Source: Akkermansia muciniphila (GTDB lineage Bacteria > Verrucomicrobiota > Verrucomicrobiia > Verrucomicrobiales > Akkermansiaceae). From it: DNA of 43,980 bases. Numbering within the stretch: position 1 is the first letter of the stretch; every line of letters starts with the position of its first letter. Of this stretch, positions 21,377 through 31,597 are shown in pieces. Under the pieces are notes generated by a model. It was not told where the DNA came from. It ran no database searches and saw only the letters and a list, made by a program, of their open reading frames with translations. Where the stretch lies: NCBI RefSeq assembly GCF_018709685.1, contig NZ_JABDHQ010000018.1, positions 1 through 43,980 of the forward strand. Reading direction: 5' to 3'. Position numbers and translations under genes: made by a program.

Positions 21377-21409
21377 ATCCTCGCTTATATTCGATGAGGG
21401 AGGATTTTT
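21377..21409 (+). terminator. terminator-like hairpin between paralogs 1 and 2
   Basis: ATCCTC (21377-21382) pairs with GAGGAT (21400-21405) and the right arm runs into TTTTT. The loop can form a further small stem. Stability is moderate. Confidence 0.5.
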
Positions 21410-21471
21410 CCTTTGTGGAAGCCAGCTCATTTCCTGGGGACTCTCCGGGCGACGGCCAAACTCTCGCTGTG

Positions 21472-22041
21472 ATGAAAAAAATCTTCCGGTATTTAGGAAT
21501 TTTGGGTTGCCTGTCCCTCCATGCAGCAGCATGGGGGGATACGGCTGACAACGGAGTGGAATGCTCCGTTGTGATGGAAAAAACCCTGTTTGACGCGAGA
21601 GAGGCTTTTCCGGACTTCAAGCTAGTGTTCACGAACAAGGGCGAAAAGACCGTTCGCCTTTTCGACGATTTCTATCCCATCAAAGGATATGGACCCAATA
21701 TCCACATCGAAATATGGCAAAAGGAAGGCGGGAAGAGATTTGGGAAAAGAGTAGGAAAAACAGAAAATCCTATAGCTTGGTATGGAGCCGGGTATCAAAT
21801 TGAACGGGCAGCGGACTCCATACGCTTCATCACGTTAAAGCCCGGTGAGAAGCATGAGGTGCCTATCAAGGACGCTTACCTGTTGCTGGTGTATTTCGAA
21901 CATCTTCGCAATGGAAAGAGGTACGAGCTTGAAGTAAGTTTCAGGGATGGATGGGCGGAACCCGGTGTTCGGAGAAAGTATGTAGGAAGATCTGATTTTA
22001 ACACGATGTGTAGATCACCCAAAGGTGCCTTTCCGGGTTAG
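21472..22041 (+). CDS. secreted paralog, copy 2 of 3
   Basis: Exported protein of 189 residues, clearly homologous to copy 1 (Asn-Gly-Val-Glu-Cys-Ser-Val, Leu-Val-Phe-Thr-Asn-Lys-Gly, Val-Arg-Leu-Phe-Asp-Asp-Phe-Tyr-Pro, Phe-Ile-Thr-Leu-Lys-Pro-Gly-Glu-Lys-His). It has an extra central segment with Ala-Trp-Tyr-Gly-Ala-Gly-Tyr-Gln-Ile-Glu-Arg that is absent from copy 1 but present in copy 3. I chose ATG 21472 because it begins a proper signal peptide (Met-Lys-Lys-Ile-Phe, ending Ala-Ala-Ala-Trp-Gly); the frame is open 26 codons further upstream. The ATG is followed by seven A residues. Upstream bases are also shared with copy 3, so the duplication included the leader. Confidence 0.75.
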   Translation: MKKIFRYLGILGCLSLHAAAWGDTADNGVECSVVMEKTLFDAREAFPDFKLVFTNKGEKTVRLFDDFYPIKGYGPNIHIEIWQKEGGKRFGKRVGKTENPIAWYGAGYQIERAADSIRFITLKPGEKHEVPIKDAYLLLVYFEHLRNGKRYELEVSFRDGWAEPGVRRKYVGRSDFNTMCRSPKGAFPG

Positions 22042-22085
22042 TAGTTTTATAGGACTCTCCGGCCAACATTCAAGTTCGCGCTGTG

Positions 22086-22634
22086 ATGAAAAAAAATCTT
22101 CCGGTATTTAGCACTTCTGGCAAGCCTGTCCCTCCACGCTGCGGCATGGGGCAACGGGATCGAATGTTCCGTGATGATGGAAAAGACCAAGTTTGACGCA
22201 AGAGAGACTTTCCCGGACTTCAAGCTGGTATTCACGAACAAGGGCGAAAAGACCGTGCGCCTTTTTGATGACTTCTATCCCCTCAAGGATTATGGCCCGA
22301 ATATTTTCATAAAGATTTTTTTTTAACGGGAAACGGGAAGAAGATGGACAAACCCACAGCTTGGTATGGAGCCGGGTATCAAATTGAACGAAGAGCTAAC
22401 TCCATACACTTCATTACGTTACAACCGGGAGAAAAACATAAAGTGCTCATCAAGGATGCGTATTCATTGTTAGTCTATCTTGGTCCTTTTCCACGTCTTT
22501 TCAACGGAAAGAAGTACGAGTTGGAAGTAAGCTTCCGGGATGGATATGGAGAGCCGGGGATATGGAGAAAGTATGTGGCCAGAAAAGATTTTGAACCAGT
22601 AAGCCGATCCCCTAAAGGAGTTATTCCTCAATAG
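22086..22634 (+). pseudogene. secreted paralog, copy 3, broken at two homopolymers
   Basis: Third tandem copy, closest to copy 2. After ATG 22086 there are eight A residues where copy 2 has seven, so translation shifts frame and stops at 22194. In the correct frame the sequence continues Gly-Ile-Glu-Cys-Ser-Val through Phe-Asp-Asp-Phe-Tyr-Pro to a run of nine T (about 22316-22324) that gives a stop; ten T would rejoin the downstream frame at Met-Asp-Lys-Pro-Thr-Ala-Trp-Tyr-Gly-Ala-Gly. The rest, to 22634, is intact and conserved. The two length changes have opposite sign. This could be real decay, slipped-strand phase variation, or assembly error in homopolymers. The even conservation outside the tracts argues for recent change. 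Confidence 0.75.
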
Positions 22635-24468: not shown

Positions 24469-24496
24469 CCTTCCCTCCGGAAGGGACGCATCTTTT
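24469..24496 (+). terminator. weak terminator candidate
   Basis: CCTTCC (24469-24474) pairs with GGAAGG (24479-24484), and TCTTTT follows a few bases later. It lies between convergent genes. Confidence 0.35.
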
Positions 24497-24504
24497 CCGG
24501 GGAA

Positions 24505-24858
24505 TCAGGAGGAGGGAACGAGCCTCACTTCCCGCCTTGTCCTGTCCTCTTCCGTGACGGTCAGCACATAAAATACCCCGTCCTCCTTCTTCCCGCGCGT
24601 GACGATAATGGTCAGGGTGCCGCGGGACAGCTTCACGCCATCCTCCGGAACGGAGACAACGCCCAGTTCGCCCAGCAGCTCAAGCGCCCTGGCTCCGTCC
24701 CTCACACGGATGGTCTGGCCGTCGCCTGAAATTTGCTTCTTCACGTCCTGCCAGGCGGCGGCCAGCTGGCCCGGCTCCCGCTGCTGCATCTCCGCCTGGG
24801 AAAGGGGAGGCAGAGCCATGCAGAGCACGGCGGCCAGCATCATCAACAGTCTCTTCAT
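24505..24858 (-). CDS. small exported protein at the end of the DUF2589 cluster
   Basis: Protein of 117 residues with a clear signal peptide (Met-Lys-Arg, hydrophobic core, Leu-Ser-Gln-Ala cleavage region). The mature part is an alpha/beta segment with Ala-Trp-Gln-Asp-Val-Lys-Lys-Gln-Ile, Gly-Thr-Leu-Thr-Ile-Ile-Val-Thr-Arg-Gly-Lys-Lys and Phe-Tyr-Val-Leu-Thr-Val-Thr-Glu. I do not recognise the family. Its ATG overlaps the zinc-ribbon gene's stop, so it is translationally coupled and probably part of the same unit, but it is the only exported product of the cluster. Confidence 0.65.
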   Translation of the reverse strand: MKRLLMMLAAVLCMALPPLSQAEMQQREPGQLAAAWQDVKKQISGDGQTIRVRDGARALELLGELGVVSVPEDGVKLSRGTLTIIVTRGKKEDGVFYVLTVTEEDRTRREVRLVPSS

Positions 24859-25085
24859 GACAGGGAGGCGGCAGGAAGCTGTTTGTCAAGGGTAGCCTGG
24901 AACTTTTCCAGGGCCTGCATGGCGTGGTCGGAAGACTTCCGGTCAATGGAAAGCTTCAGCCCGCAGTGGGGGCATTCAATGCCGCCGGACAACAGGTCCG
25001 GAATGGTTGTGGGGAAATACACACCGCATTTGGGGCAGTCAAGCCCCGGAGTGCGCTGGTAGGAATAAGTGGTTTTCTGGTCCAT
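24855..25085 (-). CDS. small zinc-ribbon protein
   Basis: Protein of 76 residues. A two-knuckle zinc ribbon (Cys-Pro-Lys-Cys and Cys-Pro-His-Cys, 20 residues apart) occupies residues about 17-42. A charged helix follows (His-Ala-Met-Gln-Ala-Leu-Glu-Lys-Phe-Gln). It could bind nucleic acid or be a protein-interaction module. It lies 15 bp after the second DUF2589 gene and overlaps the following gene by ATGA. Confidence 0.75.
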   Translation of the reverse strand: MDQKTTYSYQRTPGLDCPKCGVYFPTTIPDLLSGGIECPHCGLKLSIDRKSSDHAMQALEKFQATLDKQLPAASLS

Positions 25086-25099
25086 GTTTTTTCTTTCAA

Positions 25100-25693
25100 T
25101 TAGTTATTTTTCTCCTGGGAGGGAGAGTCTTCATAATGCGGCCTGGAGGTCAGCTGGAGGAATTGGGACAGGCCGGAAGGCATGTCCGCCTGCTGCATGG
25201 CTACATGGATTTTCATGTTCGCCTGCAGGGAGGAAGAGGCGCCCCCCCTGCCGGACTGGGGCGCCAGGGAAGCCCGGAAGTTCAGGCCGTCACCCTGCCC
25301 CTGCCCGGCGGAGGAATCCACCTCGCCCTTGTTCAGGGAAAAGCGTTCATCCGGAGCGGAGGCAACCGCGTCAATGATGTTGATGTCAAAGTCAAAGTCC
25401 GCCTGCTTGATTTGCAGCAGAGGCAGCGTCACCAGGCTGATGAGCGGCACGCTGACTTTCTTCTCCGCGCCGCCGGAAGCGTCGCTGTCCGTAAAATTAA
25501 AGCTGATGAGCCTTAACGCCCCCGTGGAACCGTCCGCGGGATTGTAGGACTCAAAAGCCAGGGACATGAAATGCTTCATGTAGCGTTCCGTGGACATCGC
25601 GTCCGCATCAATCGTCGCGACCAGCGGGGCCGAGATCAACTGCTGCAGGCTCATGATGTGCCCGTTCACCTTGTTGTTTGTAGAATCACTCAT
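25100..25693 (-). CDS. DUF2589 protein B
   Basis: Protein of 197 residues, without signal peptide or membrane helix. It shares with protein A (26550-27389) a start of Ser-Leu-Gln with Ala/Gly-Pro-Leu-Val-Ala, a central strand pair Val-Ser-Val-Pro-Leu-Ile-Ser-Leu-Val-x-Leu-Pro followed by Phe-Asp-Phe-Asp-Ile-Asn, and the C-terminal motif Met-Lys-Ile-His-Val-Ala-Met-Gln-Gln-Ala-Asp-Met-Pro-Ser-Gly. These are hallmarks of DUF2589, whose function is unknown. A Gly/Ser/Gln-rich loop (about 120-150) separates the two halves. I set the start at ATG 25693; a GTG four codons earlier overlaps the upstream stop. Confidence 0.8.
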   Translation of the reverse strand: MSDSTNNKVNGHIMSLQQLISAPLVATIDADAMSTERYMKHFMSLAFESYNPADGSTGALRLISFNFTDSDASGGAEKKVSVPLISLVTLPLLQIKQADFDFDINIIDAVASAPDERFSLNKGEVDSSAGQGQGDGLNFRASLAPQSGRGGASSSLQANMKIHVAMQQADMPSGLSQFLQLTSRPHYEDSPSQEKNN

Positions 25694-25704
25694 AATAAAT
25701 ATCA

Positions 25705-26511
25705 CTATTGCGCGGCCAGTCCGGAGACGTCATTCTGCTCCGCCAGGACGGCGGGAACGGCGGCGGGCGCGATGTTGAGGTGCAGCGTCTGGATGGAGTT
25801 CTCCGGCATCTTTTTCAGCTTTTCCGTCTCCACCTCCACGTCCACCACCACATTGCTTACCTGCCGGGTGAACGCATACTTTTCCGCAAGCACGTCAATG
25901 AAAGAGGAGAGGCCTTCCCGTAGATTCGTGCGGCACTCCTGCCTGAGGGCGTCGCCCTGCGCTCCCTGGAACAGGTCCGCCAGATCGGGATTGTCCATGA
26001 ATTCCTTCTCCGCCACATCCGCCAGAAGTTCCGCCAGCAATCCCTTGTCCAGTCCGGAGTCCGCCCGCAGGAGGGCCCCCTCATGGCCTGAAACGGCCGC
26101 AGTGATCTTCTTTCCCAGGTAGAGGCAGAAATTCCTTTTCCACTGTTCCTCCCTGGCAAGCAGGGAGGAAAAGTCACTTCTTACCTCATCCGCCGGGAGA
26201 TTGGAGTGCACCACGGCCATCACAATGGAACGGATGGCGTACGCAGGCACGCGCTCCGCCAGTTCCTGCTGGAACAGGCTGCACTGCTCCGCATCCAGCA
26301 CCTGCTTCTCCTCCACCCCGGAGGTTCCCGTCACCGCATACTTCAGATCGAATTCCAGGGACCCTATCTGGGCGCTGGGAAGCTGGAAGCCACGCACACC
26401 GCCATGCTTCCCGTACTGGCGCGCCAGCCCCGCCGCATGGCAGTTTGCCGCATGCTGCGCTTCAATAATGTCCCTCAGCAGGGATTCGACAATCAGATTC
26501 AGACGAGACAT
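25705..26511 (-). CDS. DUF2589-associated protein of unknown function
   Basis: Protein of 268 residues between the two DUF2589 genes. The N-terminal helix carries Leu-Leu-Arg-Asp-Ile-Ile-Glu-Ala-Gln-His-Ala-Ala-Asn; a strand Ser-Leu-Glu-Phe-Asp-Leu-Lys-Tyr-Ala-Val follows; the rest is helical, ending with strands Val-Val-Val-Asp-Val-Glu-Val and Leu-His-Leu-Asn-Ile-Ala-Pro. Those strands resemble the alternating beta motifs of the DUF2589 proteins, so it may be a distant relative or a partner. No signal peptide or catalytic motif was seen. Spacing is 38 bp from gene A and 11 bp to gene B, which supports one transcript. Confidence 0.65.
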   Translation of the reverse strand: MSRLNLIVESLLRDIIEAQHAANCHAAGLARQYGKHGGVRGFQLPSAQIGSLEFDLKYAVTGTSGVEEKQVLDAEQCSLFQQELAERVPAYAIRSIVMAVVHSNLPADEVRSDFSSLLAREEQWKRNFCLYLGKKITAAVSGHEGALLRADSGLDKGLLAELLADVAEKEFMDNPDLADLFQGAQGDALRQECRTNLREGLSSFIDVLAEKYAFTRQVSNVVVDVEVETEKLKKMPENSIQTLHLNIAPAAVPAVLAEQNDVSGLAAQ

Positions 26512-26549
26512 GGCTCTGGGATGAAGGAGAAATCGTTATGGTCCGGTTA

Positions 26550-27389
26550 TCAGGCGCCTACAGCCACTTTCCTTTTGAGTTCTCCGGCGTTCACCGTGCA
26601 GTTCCTGGCGTCCTCCTTGGAAATCGTGTATTCCTTGCCGGAATCCGTTTTCACAATCTTGGCTTCATTCCCCGCACCGTTATCAAACGGGTCCGTGGCT
26701 TCCCCTATCCGGAGAGTGATGGCGTCCGGATCAAACAGGCCTTCCTTGTTCTTGTAGGAGGTCATCAGTTTCACGGTTCCGTCGTCCTGGATGGCATGCT
26801 GCACTTCCAGGGAACCTTCCGGGGATATTACGGAAATGCTGTTATTCAGCATTTCCAGCACCTTGGCCATCCCGGCGGGCATGCTGTCCTGTCCGGCATG
26901 GACGGCCACGTCCATCGTGTATTCCACGCTGTACTTGGAGTCCTTCGTGGCGGAGGAGTCCTTCTTGCTGGAATAACTGGCGCTCATGCTGCCGCGCGCC
27001 CAGAAGCAATTTGCAGAGGCAGAAACGCTGGTGTCTACGGAGCTGGAGGAATTCTCCGTTTCCGTACTGGCGGCGGAAGCGCTGATGTTCGCCTTGAAGT
27101 TGATGTCAATGGAGTTGATGGCGATGTAAGGAATGGGGACGATGGTCAGAAGGGGGACCGTGATCTGGGCCATATGGCCGTCCTTGATGAACTGGAAGGA
27201 GACGTTCACCGTCTTCTTCTCTTCTCCCTCCGTGTACAGGCCCACATTCTGGATGAACTCCCAGGAGGTCCGGGCCGCCTGGGCCTGGGCTTCCACACAG
27301 GCGACCAAGGGACCGCCGATGATGTTGCCGAAAGGCAGCGACTGCAGGGAGGAAGTCGCCACGTCGGCTGCTGATTTATCAATTGCCAT
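26550..27389 (-). CDS. DUF2589 protein A
   Basis: Protein of 279 residues. The N-terminal helix region has Ser-Leu-Gln-Ser-Leu-Pro-Phe-Gly-Asn-Ile-Ile-Gly-Gly-Pro-Leu-Val-Ala. Strands Ile-Thr-Val-Pro-Leu-Leu-Thr-Ile-Val-Pro-Ile-Pro and Ile-Asp-Ile-Asn-Phe-Lys-Ala follow, then a Ser/Ala/Thr-rich low-complexity stretch (about 100-150), then Met-Asp-Val-Ala-Val-His-Ala-Gly-Gln-Asp-Ser-Met-Pro-Ala-Gly-Met with Val-Leu-Glu-Met-Leu-Asn-Asn. The C-terminal 80 residues form an extra domain not seen in protein B. DUF2589 has no known activity; paired copies imply a hetero-complex or polymer, which is inference. Confidence 0.85.
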   Translation of the reverse strand: MAIDKSAADVATSSLQSLPFGNIIGGPLVACVEAQAQAARTSWEFIQNVGLYTEGEEKKTVNVSFQFIKDGHMAQITVPLLTIVPIPYIAINSIDINFKANISASAASTETENSSSSVDTSVSASANCFWARGSMSASYSSKKDSSATKDSKYSVEYTMDVAVHAGQDSMPAGMAKVLEMLNNSISVISPEGSLEVQHAIQDDGTVKLMTSYKNKEGLFDPDAITLRIGEATDPFDNGAGNEAKIVKTDSGKEYTISKEDARNCTVNAGELKRKVAVGA

Positions 27390-27536
27390 ATTATTTTATT
27401 TTCTGGTTGAGGTTAATATGATGTGCCGCCTTCCGGCGACGTTGTCATGATTGTTCCATTCCGGCGCCTTTTCCACCCCGCCTGTCCGGAAGGCCCGTTC
27501 CGCCTTCCCAGAGCGCCGGCGGGGCATGGCTGGCGG

Positions 27537-28022
27537 CTATTTGGAAAACGACAGCATGTTCAGGCTTCCCAGCACTTTCTTTTTCATGAACTTGCTGACG
27601 GGGATGGAGACATTCCCCACCTGGAGGAAATTACCCGCAATGGACTCTATATGCAGCTTGTTAACCAGGTAGGAACGATGCACACGGATGAAATATTCCC
27701 CGTCCAGGTGTTCCGCCACCCGCGCCAGCGGCGCGGATACCAGAATGGACGACATGCCGTGCACATGCAGCGTGCAGTAGCTTCCTGCGGCCTCCACATA
27801 CAGGATGTGCTTCATCAGAATGCGCTGGAATCCGTCATTCATTTTAACGAACACCATGGGATTCCTGGATAGGGAAACCGCAGTCGCCCTGCCCGCCGGC
27901 GGAGAGAAGGCCCCCTCCTTCATTTCCATGATTTCCAGCTTGTCCCCCTGTTCTACCGGCTCCGGGACCGGAGCGTAGCAGACCCTATCTTTTTTAGTGA
28001 CTTTAATAAATTTAACGGTCAT
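27537..28022 (-). CDS. LytTR-type DNA-binding regulator without receiver domain
   Basis: Protein of 161 residues whose C-terminal 100 residues form a LytTR domain: Ile-Leu-Tyr-Val-Glu-Ala-Ala-Gly-Ser-Tyr-Cys, Phe-Ile-Arg-Val-His-Arg-Ser-Tyr-Leu-Val-Asn and Ile-Pro-Val-Ser-Lys-Phe-Met-Lys-Lys-Lys-Val. The N-terminal 55 residues are not a response-regulator receiver, so activity is probably set by another signal or by abundance. It is the first gene of a minus-strand run leading into the DUF2589 genes; a 147-bp gap with nested GC-rich stems and an AT-rich stretch before 27389 separates them. It is a likely regulator of that cluster or of itself. Confidence 0.85.
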   Translation of the reverse strand: MTVKFIKVTKKDRVCYAPVPEPVEQGDKLEIMEMKEGAFSPPAGRATAVSLSRNPMVFVKMNDGFQRILMKHILYVEAAGSYCTLHVHGMSSILVSAPLARVAEHLDGEYFIRVHRSYLVNKLHIESIAGNFLQVGNVSIPVSKFMKKKVLGSLNMLSFSK

Positions 28023-28204
28023 TCAAAAATCATAACAAAAACTATAAATACTCAATAAATTCATCAATGAACAGCAGAAATGACCTTCTGAAACCAAATT
28101 CCTCTCTTCCGAACGGCCCTGAAAACCGAGCCTTACCAACGCATTCAGGCCGTGGAAACCCTGTTCCACGGCCTGAATTTCCCCCATATCCGGCGGGAGA
28201 AAAC
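28023..28204. other. upstream region of the LytTR gene
   Basis: AT-rich next to the LytTR start (28021-28075), as expected of a minus-strand promoter. The rest contains the 15-bp stem-loop listed separately. No pair of LytTR-box direct repeats stood out on inspection. Confidence 0.45.
28143..28178. repeat. perfect 15-bp stem-loop
   Basis: ATTCAGGCCGTGGAA (28143-28157) and TTCCACGGCCTGAAT (28164-28178) form a 15-bp perfect stem with a six-base loop. No T-run follows on either strand. It lies between the LytTR gene and the remnant at 28205. It may be a Rho-independent-like stop, an RNA processing element, or a protein-binding site. Confidence 0.6.
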
Positions 28205-28571: not shown

Positions 28572-30038
28572 TCACGCCTGCGGCGGAATTCCCGGACGGT
28601 GGGCGCAGCACGGCCCCACCTCCCCGGCCTGAAGACGGTCAAAGGCCCATTCCCCGAACGTCCACGCCCCATTCTCCCTTTTGGCCAGGGCAAACTGGCG
28701 GAAAATCTCCCGGAACAGCTCCCGCACCTTCCCGATGGGAACGGCCCGGCGCAGCAGGAACGCCGTCCTGTCGCCCTGGGCGCGTCCTCCGGCAAACACG
28801 TCGTAAACGCCTTCGCTCCGGCCCACCAGGGCCAGCTCCGCAAACAGGGGGCGGGAACAGCCGTTGGGGCAGCCGGAGATGCGGAACACCACGGGCTCGT
28901 CATCAAGCCCGAATTCACGCAGGATTTCCTCCAGCCAGCCGTTGAGTTCCTGATGAATCAGGGAGGAAGCGGCACGGGCGCGGCGGCAGCCGGGCAGGCC
29001 GCGGCAGGAACAGGACTCTATGGAGAGCGGAGAAAAGCGCCTGGACCCGCGCAGCAGCGCCTTGATGCGTTCCGCCACGCACCTGTCCGCCGGATGAAGC
29101 CGGAGATTGCCGCGCGGCGTGATGCGCACCGGAGCCGTCAGGAAGGGGGCCACGCGCCGGAATGCCGTCGCCACCGCATATTCCGGCGTATCCTCCAGGC
29201 TTCCGGAAGGGAGCGCCACCAGCAGCCCGTTGTAGAAGTCATTGCGGCTCCATTCCCCGGATGAGGAAAATTCCGGCTCCTCCCCTTCTCCCGGATACAA
29301 TCCGGCGTTTTTCAATTCGTTCCGCACCCAGTCCAGGCCACGCGTGGCGAACAAGGACTTCAACCGCCTTTTGCGCGGGTTCTCCGTTTCCCCGAACCGT
29401 TCATTCAAGGCCGCCAGCACCGCCGCCGCCTTCAGGGCTTCCGGCAGGGAATACCGTCCCAGCCATGACGCGGCCCGCGGGGCCAGGGCCGGACTGCCGG
29501 CGGGGATGCCGCCCCCGCCTCCGGCAAACAAATGCACGCCGCCTTCCGGATGGCCGCCTTTGGGGACCGCAAAACCCAGGTCACAGGAGAACAGGCCGAA
29601 TTCATGGTGCGGGGCTTCTTCCAGGCAAATCCTGACGCGCTTGTGCAGGGCGGAGAAGCGTTCTTCCGGCCTGGGATCCGAGGAAAAGAGGCATTCGCGG
29701 TTCCTGCGTATTTCATATGCAGGGAAGGAAACGGGGGAGGAAAACCGATTCAGTTTTCCGGCAAATTGCAGCCATGCGTCCCGGTTTTCCCCCCAGCAAA
29801 GGGAAGAACCCACATCCACGGCCTGTTCCGCATACGGGACCAGGCGGGAAAGCTTCTCCGCCAGGGCCATGCCTTTCCGCACGCATTCGCGCTCATCCAC
29901 CCCGTCCAGGGGAATGGACAGGGTGGAGAAGGAAACAAGGCGGCATCCGCCGTCCACGGCCTCCAGAATGGCGTGCCACTGGGCGGGTTCCATCCAGCCC
30001 CCGCAAAAAGGGTATTCCAGGGTGTAGGTATCTCTCAT
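28572..30038 (-). CDS. siroheme sulfite/nitrite reductase family protein
   Basis: Protein of 488 residues with the siroheme-[4Fe-4S] ligands of the sulfite/nitrite reductase family: Ser-Cys-Ser-Cys-Arg-Gly-Leu-Pro-Gly-Cys (a C-x5-C pair) and Gly-Cys-Pro-Asn-Gly-Cys-Ser-Arg-Pro (C-x3-C). The Asn-Asp-Phe-Tyr-Asn-Gly-Leu segment and Ile-Thr-Pro-Arg-Gly-Asn-Leu-Arg-Leu match the half-repeats of CysI-like hemoproteins. It is somewhat shorter than E. coli CysI. The frame extends 66 codons upstream into the ferredoxin gene; ATG 30038 lies 17 bp after that gene's stop and gives Met-Arg-Asp-Thr-Tyr-Thr-Leu-Glu-Tyr. Sulfite reduction is more likely than nitrite, but not proven. Confidence 0.85.
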   Translation of the reverse strand: MRDTYTLEYPFCGGWMEPAQWHAILEAVDGGCRLVSFSTLSIPLDGVDERECVRKGMALAEKLSRLVPYAEQAVDVGSSLCWGENRDAWLQFAGKLNRFSSPVSFPAYEIRRNRECLFSSDPRPEERFSALHKRVRICLEEAPHHEFGLFSCDLGFAVPKGGHPEGGVHLFAGGGGGIPAGSPALAPRAASWLGRYSLPEALKAAAVLAALNERFGETENPRKRRLKSLFATRGLDWVRNELKNAGLYPGEGEEPEFSSSGEWSRNDFYNGLLVALPSGSLEDTPEYAVATAFRRVAPFLTAPVRITPRGNLRLHPADRCVAERIKALLRGSRRFSPLSIESCSCRGLPGCRRARAASSLIHQELNGWLEEILREFGLDDEPVVFRISGCPNGCSRPLFAELALVGRSEGVYDVFAGGRAQGDRTAFLLRRAVPIGKVRELFREIFRQFALAKRENGAWTFGEWAFDRLQAGEVGPCCAHRPGIPPQA

Positions 30039-30055
30039 GATCGGATTGAATGATG

Positions 30056-31366
30056 TCAGACTCTCGCCGTGGCCAGAAACACCACGTGCATGACGGAAAT
30101 CAGCGTTATAAAGTACAGGTCCGCCCGCGCGGACGGAACGGAGGAAAAGGGCCCGGCCATGCCGAGGCCAAGCGCGCCATGGGAACACCGGGAAATGCAG
30201 TCCCGGCACAGGGTGCAGCGGCGGGAAATACGGCAAACCCCTCCCTCACGGGAGATGGCCAGGTCACGGCAGGCGGAGGCGCATTTCATGCAGCCGGTGC
30301 ACGTCTCCCCCACACGCATGCGCCAGGGGGAAAGCCTGCCCAGCAGACTGGCCGCCAGGCCCATGGGGCAGAACCTGCTGCAATATTCCCGCACGCCGTT
30401 TGCGGAGCTTCTCTTCCAGACAAAGGGAGCCGCGAGCGCCGCGGCAAGCGCGGCCGCCAGGGCGTATTCCAGCGGCACGCCCAGAACGGACAGGAGGAAC
30501 GGGAGCCCCACTGCCGCGGCCAGGAAACCCCATCTCCAGTCACGGGAACTTTTGCCGCCCTTCACCGGGCGCCCCTTCCTGCGGGAAGAGGTGGCGGACA
30601 AGCAGTCCCAAACCCCGAAGTAGCACAGGTGGCTGCACCAGGCGCTTCCAACCAGAAGCACGGACACGCTGAACAGCGCCAGCATGAACATCCCCTCTCC
30701 CCGGTACACCGGGCCGGAAAGCATCATGAACGGCACGGGAAGATGGAGCCTGCCCGTCATCAGCAGGGAGGAAGCCACCGTGACGCCCAGCAGGAATTGC
30801 AGGAAAAAGACGGAGGCAAACACGGTCCACATCACGCGCCGCCTGCGGGGAGACGCCTGCGGATTCAGGAGGCTCTCCGCGCAATAGCCGCCCCACCACG
30901 CCAGAAGCAGAATCGCAACTCCGTTGACGCCCTGCCATGGCAGCACGCGCTCTCCCAGCAGAAGGGGGAAAGGAGCCAGCGCATCCAGCGCAAAGAGAAG
31001 CGCCACAGAGGCGGAAAACACGCGGCTGCGCGCCAGTTCCGGCGCGGACAAATTCCTCTCCCCCCGCCTGCGCCACAGAATGGCTCCGGCATGGAGCAGC
31101 AGGACGCCCAGGAGAATGGCGCCCAGGCGCGCGAACGGCAGCCCCGCCACTATCCGCAGCCTCACCAGATGGACCAATTCCACTCCCCAAAGAACCAGTG
31201 AGGCCAGCAGAAGGAATGTTACGCTCCTGCGGAGCCAGCCGCGCCCGGAAAAAGACAGGACCGCCAGCGCCAGGCACAAAATGGCCCCCGTATCCGCGCC
31301 GCCGCGTAAAAAATGGGCGGCCGTCATCAGAAAACAGAAGAAGGAGATGAGTCCGGGGCCAATCAT
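30056..31366 (-). CDS. polytopic membrane ferredoxin (NapH/CcoG-like)
   Basis: Membrane protein of 436 residues with about nine hydrophobic helices. It has two Cys-x3-Cys type sites facing one side (Cys-Ser-His-Leu-Cys and Tyr-Cys-Ser-Arg-Phe-Cys-Pro-Met-Gly), as in NapH- and CcoG-like proteins, and a C-terminal pair of [4Fe-4S] ferredoxin motifs (Cys-Thr-Gly-Cys-Met-Lys-Cys-Ala-Ser-Ala-Cys and Cys-Thr-Leu-Cys-Arg-Asp-Cys-Ile-Ser-Arg-Cys). A last helix follows. It should pass electrons from the quinone pool to a soluble acceptor; the sulfite-reductase-type gene 17 bp downstream is the natural candidate. A GTG start 16 codons upstream is possible; ATG 31366 is preferred. Confidence 0.85.
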   Translation of the reverse strand: MIGPGLISFFCFLMTAAHFLRGGADTGAILCLALAVLSFSGRGWLRRSVTFLLLASLVLWGVELVHLVRLRIVAGLPFARLGAILLGVLLLHAGAILWRRRGERNLSAPELARSRVFSASVALLFALDALAPFPLLLGERVLPWQGVNGVAILLLAWWGGYCAESLLNPQASPRRRRVMWTVFASVFFLQFLLGVTVASSLLMTGRLHLPVPFMMLSGPVYRGEGMFMLALFSVSVLLVGSAWCSHLCYFGVWDCLSATSSRRKGRPVKGGKSSRDWRWGFLAAAVGLPFLLSVLGVPLEYALAAALAAALAAPFVWKRSSANGVREYCSRFCPMGLAASLLGRLSPWRMRVGETCTGCMKCASACRDLAISREGGVCRISRRCTLCRDCISRCSHGALGLGMAGPFSSVPSARADLYFITLISVMHVVFLATARV

Positions 31367-31597
31367 GGCATCATGGGCGCCTGGCAGGCGCCCCCAACAT
31401 ACGTGAAAAGGCACGGCTCTCCAGCAAAAAACGGGCCATCCGCCCGCGGAGGAAGCCTCATTGCGTCACCCCGCGTCTCCGGAACATGCGGAAGGGCGCC
31501 CGCGCGGCGCTGAAAGCCGCGGGACGCCCCGCCGGGAGATGTCGGCCCCATGCGCCGGCTCTTTCAACCGGAACACGGGACCGCACCGGTAAGCATG

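What the first reader, a model, noticed from the sequence alone, without database searches (positions are those of the whole stretch)
24505..28022. LytTR-led cluster with two DUF2589 proteins, a partner, a zinc ribbon and an exported protein
Six minus-strand genes with short gaps or ATGA overlaps and one larger 147-bp gap after the regulator. Both DUF2589 proteins keep the same beginning (Ser-Leu-Gln...Pro-Leu-Val-Ala), central strand pair and C-terminal Met-Pro-x-Gly motif, but differ in loops and in an extra C-terminal domain of protein A. A 268-residue partner lies between them. A receiver-less LytTR protein begins the run. DUF2589 has no assigned function. Two diverged copies plus a dedicated partner suggest a hetero-oligomer or cytosolic assembly with dedicated regulation. 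A stress, density or phage-related role is speculation.
Basis: partly seen in the sequence, partly recalled or inferred. Interest (0 to 1): 0.75.

Follow-up and report, generated by a model that had tools for sequence, protein, structure and literature searches.

The report
DUF2589 four-gene operon, lysin-linked elsewhere
A gut bacterium carries an operon of unexplained proteins, run by its own switch, that recurs gene for gene in distant bacteria and there often sits beside wall-cutting enzymes of phage type, hinting at a membrane-opening or cell-lysis machine of a new kind.

Summary
Six minus-strand genes are present: LytTR, DUF2589 protein A, partner P, DUF2589 protein B, zinc ribbon Z, exported X. 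The order is the same in the 8 Akkermansia genomes, and dN is well below dS. A-P-B-Z recurs in 31 of 32 uncut loci, mostly Bacteroidota. P was found in 11 of 345 Bacteroidota genomes, all among the 25 with DUF2589; 14 of the 25 showed no P. In 19 of 29 non-Akkermansia loci a phage-type muramidase lies nearby; other loci have GH25, M15, CHAP, subtilase, trypsin-like, patatin or caspase-like genes. A has an amphipathic hairpin with aromatic tip and a probable C-terminal Ig fold. The operon is very probably Amuc_1010-1014, reported in 2018 as induced in co-culture (PMC5945754). Best reading: a LytTR-switched membrane-permeabilising assembly acting like a holin for co-encoded lysins. Akkermansia lacks the lysin, the DUF2589 fold is unsolved and no activity is shown, so the mechanism is inferred (about 0.35).

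The parts
27537..28022 (-). LytTR transcription regulator, 161 aa, no receiver domain; first gene
   Evidence: Pfam LytTR 53.3 bits, residues 67-149; conserved in the 8 Akkermansia
28023..28110 (-). Conserved block before the LytTR gene (candidate promoter and autoregulatory site)
   Evidence: By eye well conserved in the 8 aligned Akkermansia while sequence further upstream diverges; no sigma-70-like site found by the scan
27425..27440 (-). Conserved 6-bp GC hairpin GTCGCC-NNAA-GGCGGC in the 147-bp LytTR-A gap
   Evidence: Both stem arms invariant in 8 of 8 Akkermansia; only two loop bases vary. No compensatory changes, so no covariation support
26550..27389 (-). Protein A: DUF2589 domain plus C-terminal Ig-like domain, 279 aa, no N-terminal leader by hydropathy
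   Evidence: Pfam PF11655 98.2 bits; AF2 mean pLDDT 62.5; one internal hydrophobic stretch from residue 76, 19-aa mean 1.74
26964..27053 (-). Within A, residues 113-142: Ser/Thr-rich flank and amphipathic beta-hairpin with aromatic tip (candidate membrane-inserting part)
   Evidence: Period-2 hydrophobic alternation over 35 non-redundant A-type sequences; pLDDT under 50 at residues 103-157
26556..26825 (-). Within A, residues 189-278: probable immunoglobulin-fold domain
   Evidence: VIA-align Z 8.7, rmsd 2.6, 80 residues to MICA alpha3, only slightly above the tool's usual best Z of 7-8; the Chlorobaculum relative has Big_1 Ig domains
25705..26511 (-). Protein P: DUF2589 partner, 268 aa
   Evidence: No family above cut-off; adjacent relatives in other phyla; AF2 pLDDT 78.8: N-terminal helix, beta hairpin, helical middle, C-terminal strands
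25100..25693 (-). Protein B: second DUF2589 protein, 197 aa, no extra C-terminal domain
   Evidence: Pfam PF11655 57.0 bits
24855..25085 (-). Protein Z: small two-CPxC zinc-ribbon protein, 76 aa
   Evidence: Sequence shows CPKC and CPHC; four Cys invariant in 26 of 26 aligned relatives
24505..24858 (-). Protein X: small exported protein, 117 aa; fastest-evolving member
   Evidence: Hydrophobic N-terminal leader (19-aa Kyte-Doolittle mean 1.84 from residue 4); dN 0.15 and 0.38 to two relatives
24469..24484 (-). Terminator-like hairpin after X
   Evidence: Consensus scan only; 8 found in the region where shuffles give 4.4, so weak

Best explanation
A LytTR-switched operon makes a membrane-active hetero-assembly of DUF2589 proteins A and B with partner P and zinc-ribbon Z. 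When the LytTR protein turns the operon on, A, with B and P, oligomerises and inserts its amphipathic hairpins, permeabilising a membrane. In Bacteroidales the hole lets a co-encoded leaderless endolysin reach the murein, so the set works like holin plus endolysin without containing a known holin. The small exported last protein (X here; other small proteins elsewhere) would guard the envelope or gate the process. The Akkermansia version keeps the switch, the assembly and X but has no lysin in the operon, so here it would release contents, or act with an enzyme encoded elsewhere. Shown: gene set, order, co-conservation, purifying selection, phage-type muramidases next door elsewhere. Published for what is very probably the same operon: co-induction in co-culture. 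Inferred: complex formation, membrane insertion, holin-like role, guard role.
For: A-P-B-Z in 31 of 32 uncut loci. P found only with DUF2589, 11 of 11 genomes in a sample of 345, p 2.5e-14. PF11860 muramidase within 6.5 kb in 19 of 29 non-Akkermansia loci. In 21 cassette genomes checked, 15 have PF11860 and each of the 15 has a copy in the cassette, 15 of 17 matches. The three muramidases tested match phage endolysin family phrog_1224 over nearly their whole length. Of 19 muramidase sequences from DUF2589 loci, none has a 19-residue stretch above 1.6. Other lytic families stand in the neighbourhood at other loci: GH25, M15, CHAP. Alternating hairpin with W-G-P-F-like tip: column-permutation p 0.0001 and 0.004 for the two arms, preceded by Ser/Thr-rich sequence. 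Precedent for LytTR-family control of holin-like genes: LytST and lrgAB (PMC3507848, abstract start in the listing); CidA and LrgA support endolysin lysis (PMC8805020, abstract).
Against: Akkermansia has no lysin in the operon and no PF11860 match in the window's genome. Across 345 Bacteroidota, PF11860 overlaps DUF2589 genomes only weakly (5 of 23, p 0.018) and is adjacent only in G332, so the lysin link belongs to the Bacteroidales-type cassette. Eight of 29 non-Akkermansia loci show none of the hydrolases sought. The two GH25 enzymes have a hydrophobic N-terminus of their own and need no hole. Proteases and patatin at other loci do not need one either. The commonest small protein beside the lysin, C5, has no hydrophobic segment in 13 of 13, against a membrane guard. 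DUF2589-related genes occur in Archaeoglobus, which has no murein (recalled). Soluble beta strands also alternate, B lacks the tip hairpin by eye, and A has no solved relative. Amuc_1011, very probably A, was absent from sarkosyl-extracted membrane fractions. The hydrolase survey has no random-locus control.
Confidence: 0.35

Rival explanations
1. An antibacterial carrier: A, B, P and Z build a cytosolic particle that carries or accompanies a hydrolase effector (muramidase, peptidase, phospholipase) to rival cells, the small protein beside it being immunity; LytTR works as in bacteriocin regulation (recalled precedent).
For: Exchangeable hydrolases including proteases and patatin; small protein beside the lysin, in some loci with a hydrophobic N-terminus (C10, C24, L038; sequences); Ig-like domains; reported induction of the operon in co-culture with another species (PMC5945754).
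Against: Apart from the cassette families no gene family recurred in more than 4 of the 36 loci clustered, so no delivery machinery is linked, though those others were not annotated; Akkermansia has X but no effector; the small proteins of different loci are not clearly one family.
Confidence: 0.2
2. An intracellular defence or altruistic-death system: the assembly senses phage or stress and unleashes an exchangeable effector (lysin, protease, phospholipase).
For: Patchy distribution: 10 of 288 phylum genomes, 25 of 345 Bacteroidota, 2 of 140 in the Myxococcales MAG's phylum; a subtilase and a trypsin-like protein beside DUF2589 match PADLOC models.
Against: A, P, B, X, LytTR, one muramidase and one caspase-like protein match no PADLOC model, Z only weakly; the six genes are the same in all 8 Akkermansia examined rather than swapped. 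Defence-island context was not tested.
Confidence: 0.18
3. An envelope or storage scaffold: the proteins form a structural assembly and the lysins only remodel the wall so that it can be placed or exported.
For: Seven DUF2589 matches in one genome (G335), Ig domains, presence in archaea as reported, prediction of Amuc_1011 as outer-membrane protein.
Against: Proteases and patatin at related loci are not explained; phage endolysins are lytic enzymes (recalled); no leader seen on A, P, B or Z (hydropathy).
Confidence: 0.17

Closest known systems
Akkermansia muciniphila Amuc_1010 and Amuc_1011-1014 (PMC5945754)
   Same: Receiver-less LytTR gene followed by four same-direction uncharacterised genes, reported up in co-culture (regulator 5.28-fold).
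   Different: In the passages and section I read the paper gives no family, conservation or function, and does not say whether X is in that operon; the identity of the two operons is my inference
DUF2589 (PF11655)
   Same: A and B are members by curated cut-off
   Different: No assigned function; one paper naming it was found, and the passage read mentions no partner, lysin or Ig domain
Phage holin-endolysin cassettes
   Same: Phage-type muramidase without leader near candidate membrane-active proteins in Bacteroidales
   Different: No holin or other lysis family found for A, P, B or X; LytTR control; no lysin in Akkermansia
LytSR-lrgAB/cidABC
   Same: LytTR-type control of a membrane-permeabilising function, if my reading is right
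   Different: No family match links the proteins; CidA and LrgA are membrane proteins, while the window's A has one hydrophobic stretch and its P and B none over 1.6; the LytTR here has no receiver, and no kinase gene stands in the run

Membership tests
DUF2589 (PF11655) | Profile match above the curated 23 bits | tested here: met
   A 98.2 bits, B 57.0 bits
LytTR regulator | LytTR DNA-binding domain above cut-off | tested here: met
   53.3 bits against 22.6
LytTR two-component response regulator | N-terminal receiver domain | tested here: not met
   161 aa, no Response_reg match at E 1, while a LytTR protein near the G217 DUF2589 genes (L030) has one
Phage holin-endolysin cassette | Endolysin encoded in the unit | tested here: not met
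   None among the six genes; no PF11860 match in the genome (the same model matches). Other lysin families were not sought genome-wide
Phage holin-endolysin cassette | Recognisable holin or other phage lysis family | tested here: not met
   No PHROG lysis family for A, P, B, X
Beta-barrel pore-forming proteins | Amphipathic membrane-inserting hairpin | tested here: inconclusive
   Alternation and aromatic tip present, but not specific
Beta-barrel pore-forming proteins | Homology to or fold of a known pore former | tested here: inconclusive
   No PDB sequence match at E 10; DUF2589 part modelled too poorly; only the Ig domain was placed
Beta-barrel pore-forming proteins | Pore formation | not testable with these tools
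   Needs a leakage assay
Known anti-phage defence systems (PADLOC) | Match to a component model | tested here: not met
   None at E 0.01 for A, P, B, X, LytTR; Z weakly (E 0.0014)

The most novel reading that the evidence does not exclude
DUF2589 proteins are a new class of leaderless hairpin-inserting pore formers that, with a dedicated partner and a zinc-ribbon helper, replace the holin for domesticated phage endolysins in gut Bacteroidota; Akkermansia keeps a lysin-free version that it switches on when another species is present.
Probability: 0.22. Interest if true: 0.85.

Novelty: new variant of a known kind. Interest (0 to 1): 0.6.

Why it matters
DUF2589 has no assigned function, and this work ties it to a partner family found only with it, a zinc ribbon, a regulator and a recurrent set of lytic enzymes, which makes its role testable with a simple lysis-cassette or leakage assay. 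If the reading is right, gut commensals carry a non-phage lysis or release machine built on an uncharacterised fold, and the co-culture-induced Amuc_1010 operon of a widely studied organism gets a concrete hypothesis.

Tried and rejected
Phage origin of the cassette: the only phage-collection hit, MT839761, is a fragment whose A is 100% identical to a Segatella copri genome contig, and no IMG/VR contig encoded a relative of the A group searched. P as a diverged DUF2589: strand-motif resemblance seen by eye, but profile comparison gave 4% probability. X as the same family as the small proteins beside the Bacteroidota lysins: similar layout by eye, best hhalign P-value for X 0.0046 (with C10); among the others only C10 and the L050 protein linked clearly (4e-5); inconclusive. 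MHC-like Foldseek rows for A (none at E 0.001) reflect the Ig domain. Rows for P are generic helical matches. Linkage of PF11860 to DUF2589 across the phylum is weak, so I do not claim it as a general rule. An M15 hit in L065 lies on the opposite strand in what looks like a wrong frame and was not counted. Flanking-gene comparison for an empty site was not completed: the neighbour at 28572-30236 gave two strong matches and one at 30% identity in ten genomes. Paper searches returned nothing; one search returned one paper on polymorphic toxins, in whose held text LytTR and muramidase do not occur.
Full report
Observation. Pfam gives LytTR for 27537-28022 without a receiver domain, and DUF2589 for A and B above the curated cut-off; P and X match no family above its cut-off, and Z is a weakly matched two-CPxC zinc ribbon. 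PHROGs and NCBIfam add no convincing family for A, P, B or X; the LytTR protein matches phrog_8810, of unknown function.

Conservation in Akkermansia. The window lies in an Akkermansia genome, judged from named loci with the same cassette (L055, L056, L059). DUF2589 is patchy: 2 of 59 relatives searched, the window's genome included, 37 of the listed genomes being of the genus; and 10 of 288 genomes drawn from the phylum, 8 of them of this genus, the window's own included. In the 7 others all six genes are present in the same order. L055 (a further contig) has LytTR, A, P, B and Z; X was not sought there. dN/dS is 0.08 to 0.33 for the six genes in two comparisons, window with L025 and with L028; X has the highest ratios. 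A block just before the LytTR gene and a GC hairpin in the LytTR-A gap are conserved.

Conservation elsewhere. A scan of one genome for each of 84,980 species, by two peptide patterns from the A alignment, returned 35 loci, mostly Bacteroidales, plus Crocinitomix, Chlorobaculum, a Myxococcales MAG and three Akkermansia. Three loci end at the contig edge just after A (L034, L058, L066). Of the other 32, 31 hold A, P, B and Z; the exception is L065. In L042 B and the muramidase are read in two pieces. LytTR lies on the same strand within 6.5 kb in 20 of 32, with one more on the opposite strand. The profiles were built from these loci, so the counts describe shared families and are not an independent search; L056 and L059 have the contig lengths of G116 and G134, already counted among the 8 Akkermansia. 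More independent test: in 345 Bacteroidota genomes PF11655 occurs in 25 and P in 11, all 11 within those 25 and beside A by position, hypergeometric p 2.5e-14. The other 14 DUF2589 genomes gave no P match. In 22 further stretches fetched from more distant genomes, A and P stand together in 16 (17 with L031), often followed by a third helical gene in place of B; L131, L138, L141, L142 and L145 show no P. L144 repeats the L063 contig. In the phylum of the Myxococcales MAG 2 of 140 genomes have DUF2589.

Lytic enzymes. Next to the Bacteroidales cassette is an N-acetylmuramidase, PF11860, with a PG_binding_1 domain. Of the 29 uncut loci that are not Akkermansia, 19 have it within 6.5 kb, 17 of them downstream on the same strand; one has GH25, one a caspase-like gene, and 8 none of the hydrolases sought. 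Of 21 cassette-bearing genomes searched, 15 have PF11860 and each of the 15 has a copy in the cassette; 15 of 17 matches lie there (positions compared by hand with the loci). These genomes were chosen partly because their loci showed the enzyme, so the informative part is that 13 of the 15 have no second match. The three tested match phage endolysin family phrog_1224 over nearly their whole length. Nineteen muramidase sequences (a slightly different set, with L020, L022 and the near-identical L032, without L042 and L047) show no 19-residue hydrophobic stretch over 1.6; this is hydropathy only, no signal-peptide program was run. Elsewhere I found GH25 in Crocinitomix, M15 peptidase, CHAP, subtilase, trypsin-like protease and patatin, a second GH25, and two small caspase-like proteins named by eye from an AHG...STC pattern, without a family hit. 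Ten of the 22 distant stretches have one or two of these; several are near relatives of each other (three subtilase, two CHAP, two patatin-M15 loci), so there are fewer independent cases. Both GH25 enzymes carry a hydrophobic N-terminus. Seeds came from the same loci and there is no random-locus control. A cockroach-gut plasmid has two DUF2589 genes, a LuxR-type gene and a PF11860 muramidase on one strand. Against a general link, PF11860 and DUF2589 co-occur only weakly over the 345 genomes (5 of 23 PF11860 genomes, p 0.018) and are adjacent there only in G332, and the window's genome has no PF11860 match.

Protein A. AlphaFold2 gives a low-confidence model, pLDDT 62.5, with a long N-terminal helix, beta strands, a region at 103-157 under 50, and a C-terminal domain. 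That domain aligns to Ig folds (Z 8.7, rmsd 2.6, 80 residues), only a little above the tool's usual best Z, but the Chlorobaculum A has Big_1 domains. Over 35 non-redundant A-type sequences, the window's included (58 A-type, 51 with the alignment marker), the variable region shows alternation of polar and apolar residues in two arms around an aromatic tip; permuting columns gives p 0.0001 and 0.004 for the two arms, and 0.002 to 0.017 for three other window choices. This is what a membrane-inserting hairpin would show, but edge hairpins of soluble proteins can too, and B lacks it by eye. A also has a hydrophobic stretch from residue 76 (19-aa mean 1.74; 19 of 58 A-type sequences reach 1.6). 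No PDB sequence match was found for A or P at E 10. P models better, pLDDT 78.8, without a convincing relative.

Published data. PMC5945754 (passages and section 16 read) reports that Amuc_1010, a LytTR gene without receiver, rose 5.28-fold in co-culture with Anaerostipes caccae together with a putative operon Amuc_1011-1014, and notes predicted cis elements upstream. Genome G163 is one contig of 2,664,102 bases, the length I recall for the type strain, and its only LytTR match is the one of this cassette; I therefore equate the two, which is an inference. PMC4960237 (passages read) lists Amuc_1011 among 17 proteins predicted to be in the outer membrane but absent from the sarkosyl-extracted fractions, seen in low amounts in the whole proteome. 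The criteria were localisation programs, lipoprotein prediction, beta-barrel prediction or predicted non-classical secretion; which of them Amuc_1011 met was not in the passages, so this is no evidence for a barrel. The one paper found naming DUF2589 reports AF0414-AF0417 up on lactate in Archaeoglobus (PMC3949148, passage read). Searches for the family by accession and for Amuc_1010-1014 found no functional study in this library, which lacks most subscription papers.

Mechanism. I commit to a LytTR-switched membrane-permeabilising assembly, holin-like in action and not a holin by descent. Gene linkage, muramidases without leader and co-conservation are shown; co-induction is published for what is very probably the same operon; oligomer, insertion and guard role are inferred. 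The guard role is the weakest step: X is exported, but the commonest small protein beside the lysins, C5, shows no hydrophobic segment in 13 of 13. The carrier, defence and scaffold rivals remain open and the next steps would separate them. The lysin is missing from Akkermansia itself, which is the main weakness.

Noticed in passing
MT839761.1 (L022): A GenBank record labelled Bacteriophage sp. is a 4-kb fragment carrying the A-P-B-Z-muramidase cassette; its A is 100% identical to a Segatella copri contig (L032), so it is probably mislabelled.
   Followed up: yes
window 21394-22634: Two tandem related genes on the plus strand (21394-22041 and 22171-22634); the second is split into two short ORFs and looks broken.
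   Followed up: no
window 28572-31414: Neighbouring 554-aa and 452-aa ORFs look by eye like a sulfite/nitrite-reductase-type protein and a ferredoxin-type membrane protein; the first had strong matches in 2 of 10 Akkermansia genomes searched and a 30% one in a third, and the G017 copy reads through two TGA stops.
   Followed up: partly
L057 5686-7661, L060 2716-5404: In two Prevotella loci the cassette is followed by proteins that look by eye like radical-SAM maturases, repeated in L060.
   Followed up: no
L064 11590-11955, L142 8597-9025: Small proteins with AHG...STC motifs, caspase-like by eye, directly after DUF2589 cassettes; no Pfam family reached its cut-off.
   Followed up: partly
L150, L152: Vibrio plasmids carry paired DUF2589 genes near transporter substrate-binding proteins; one record also has type I secretion genes, the other a peptidoglycan-binding protein.
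   Followed up: no
L061 (G335): One Bacteroidales genome has seven DUF2589 matches in one cluster, some on open frames of over 400 aa.
   Followed up: no
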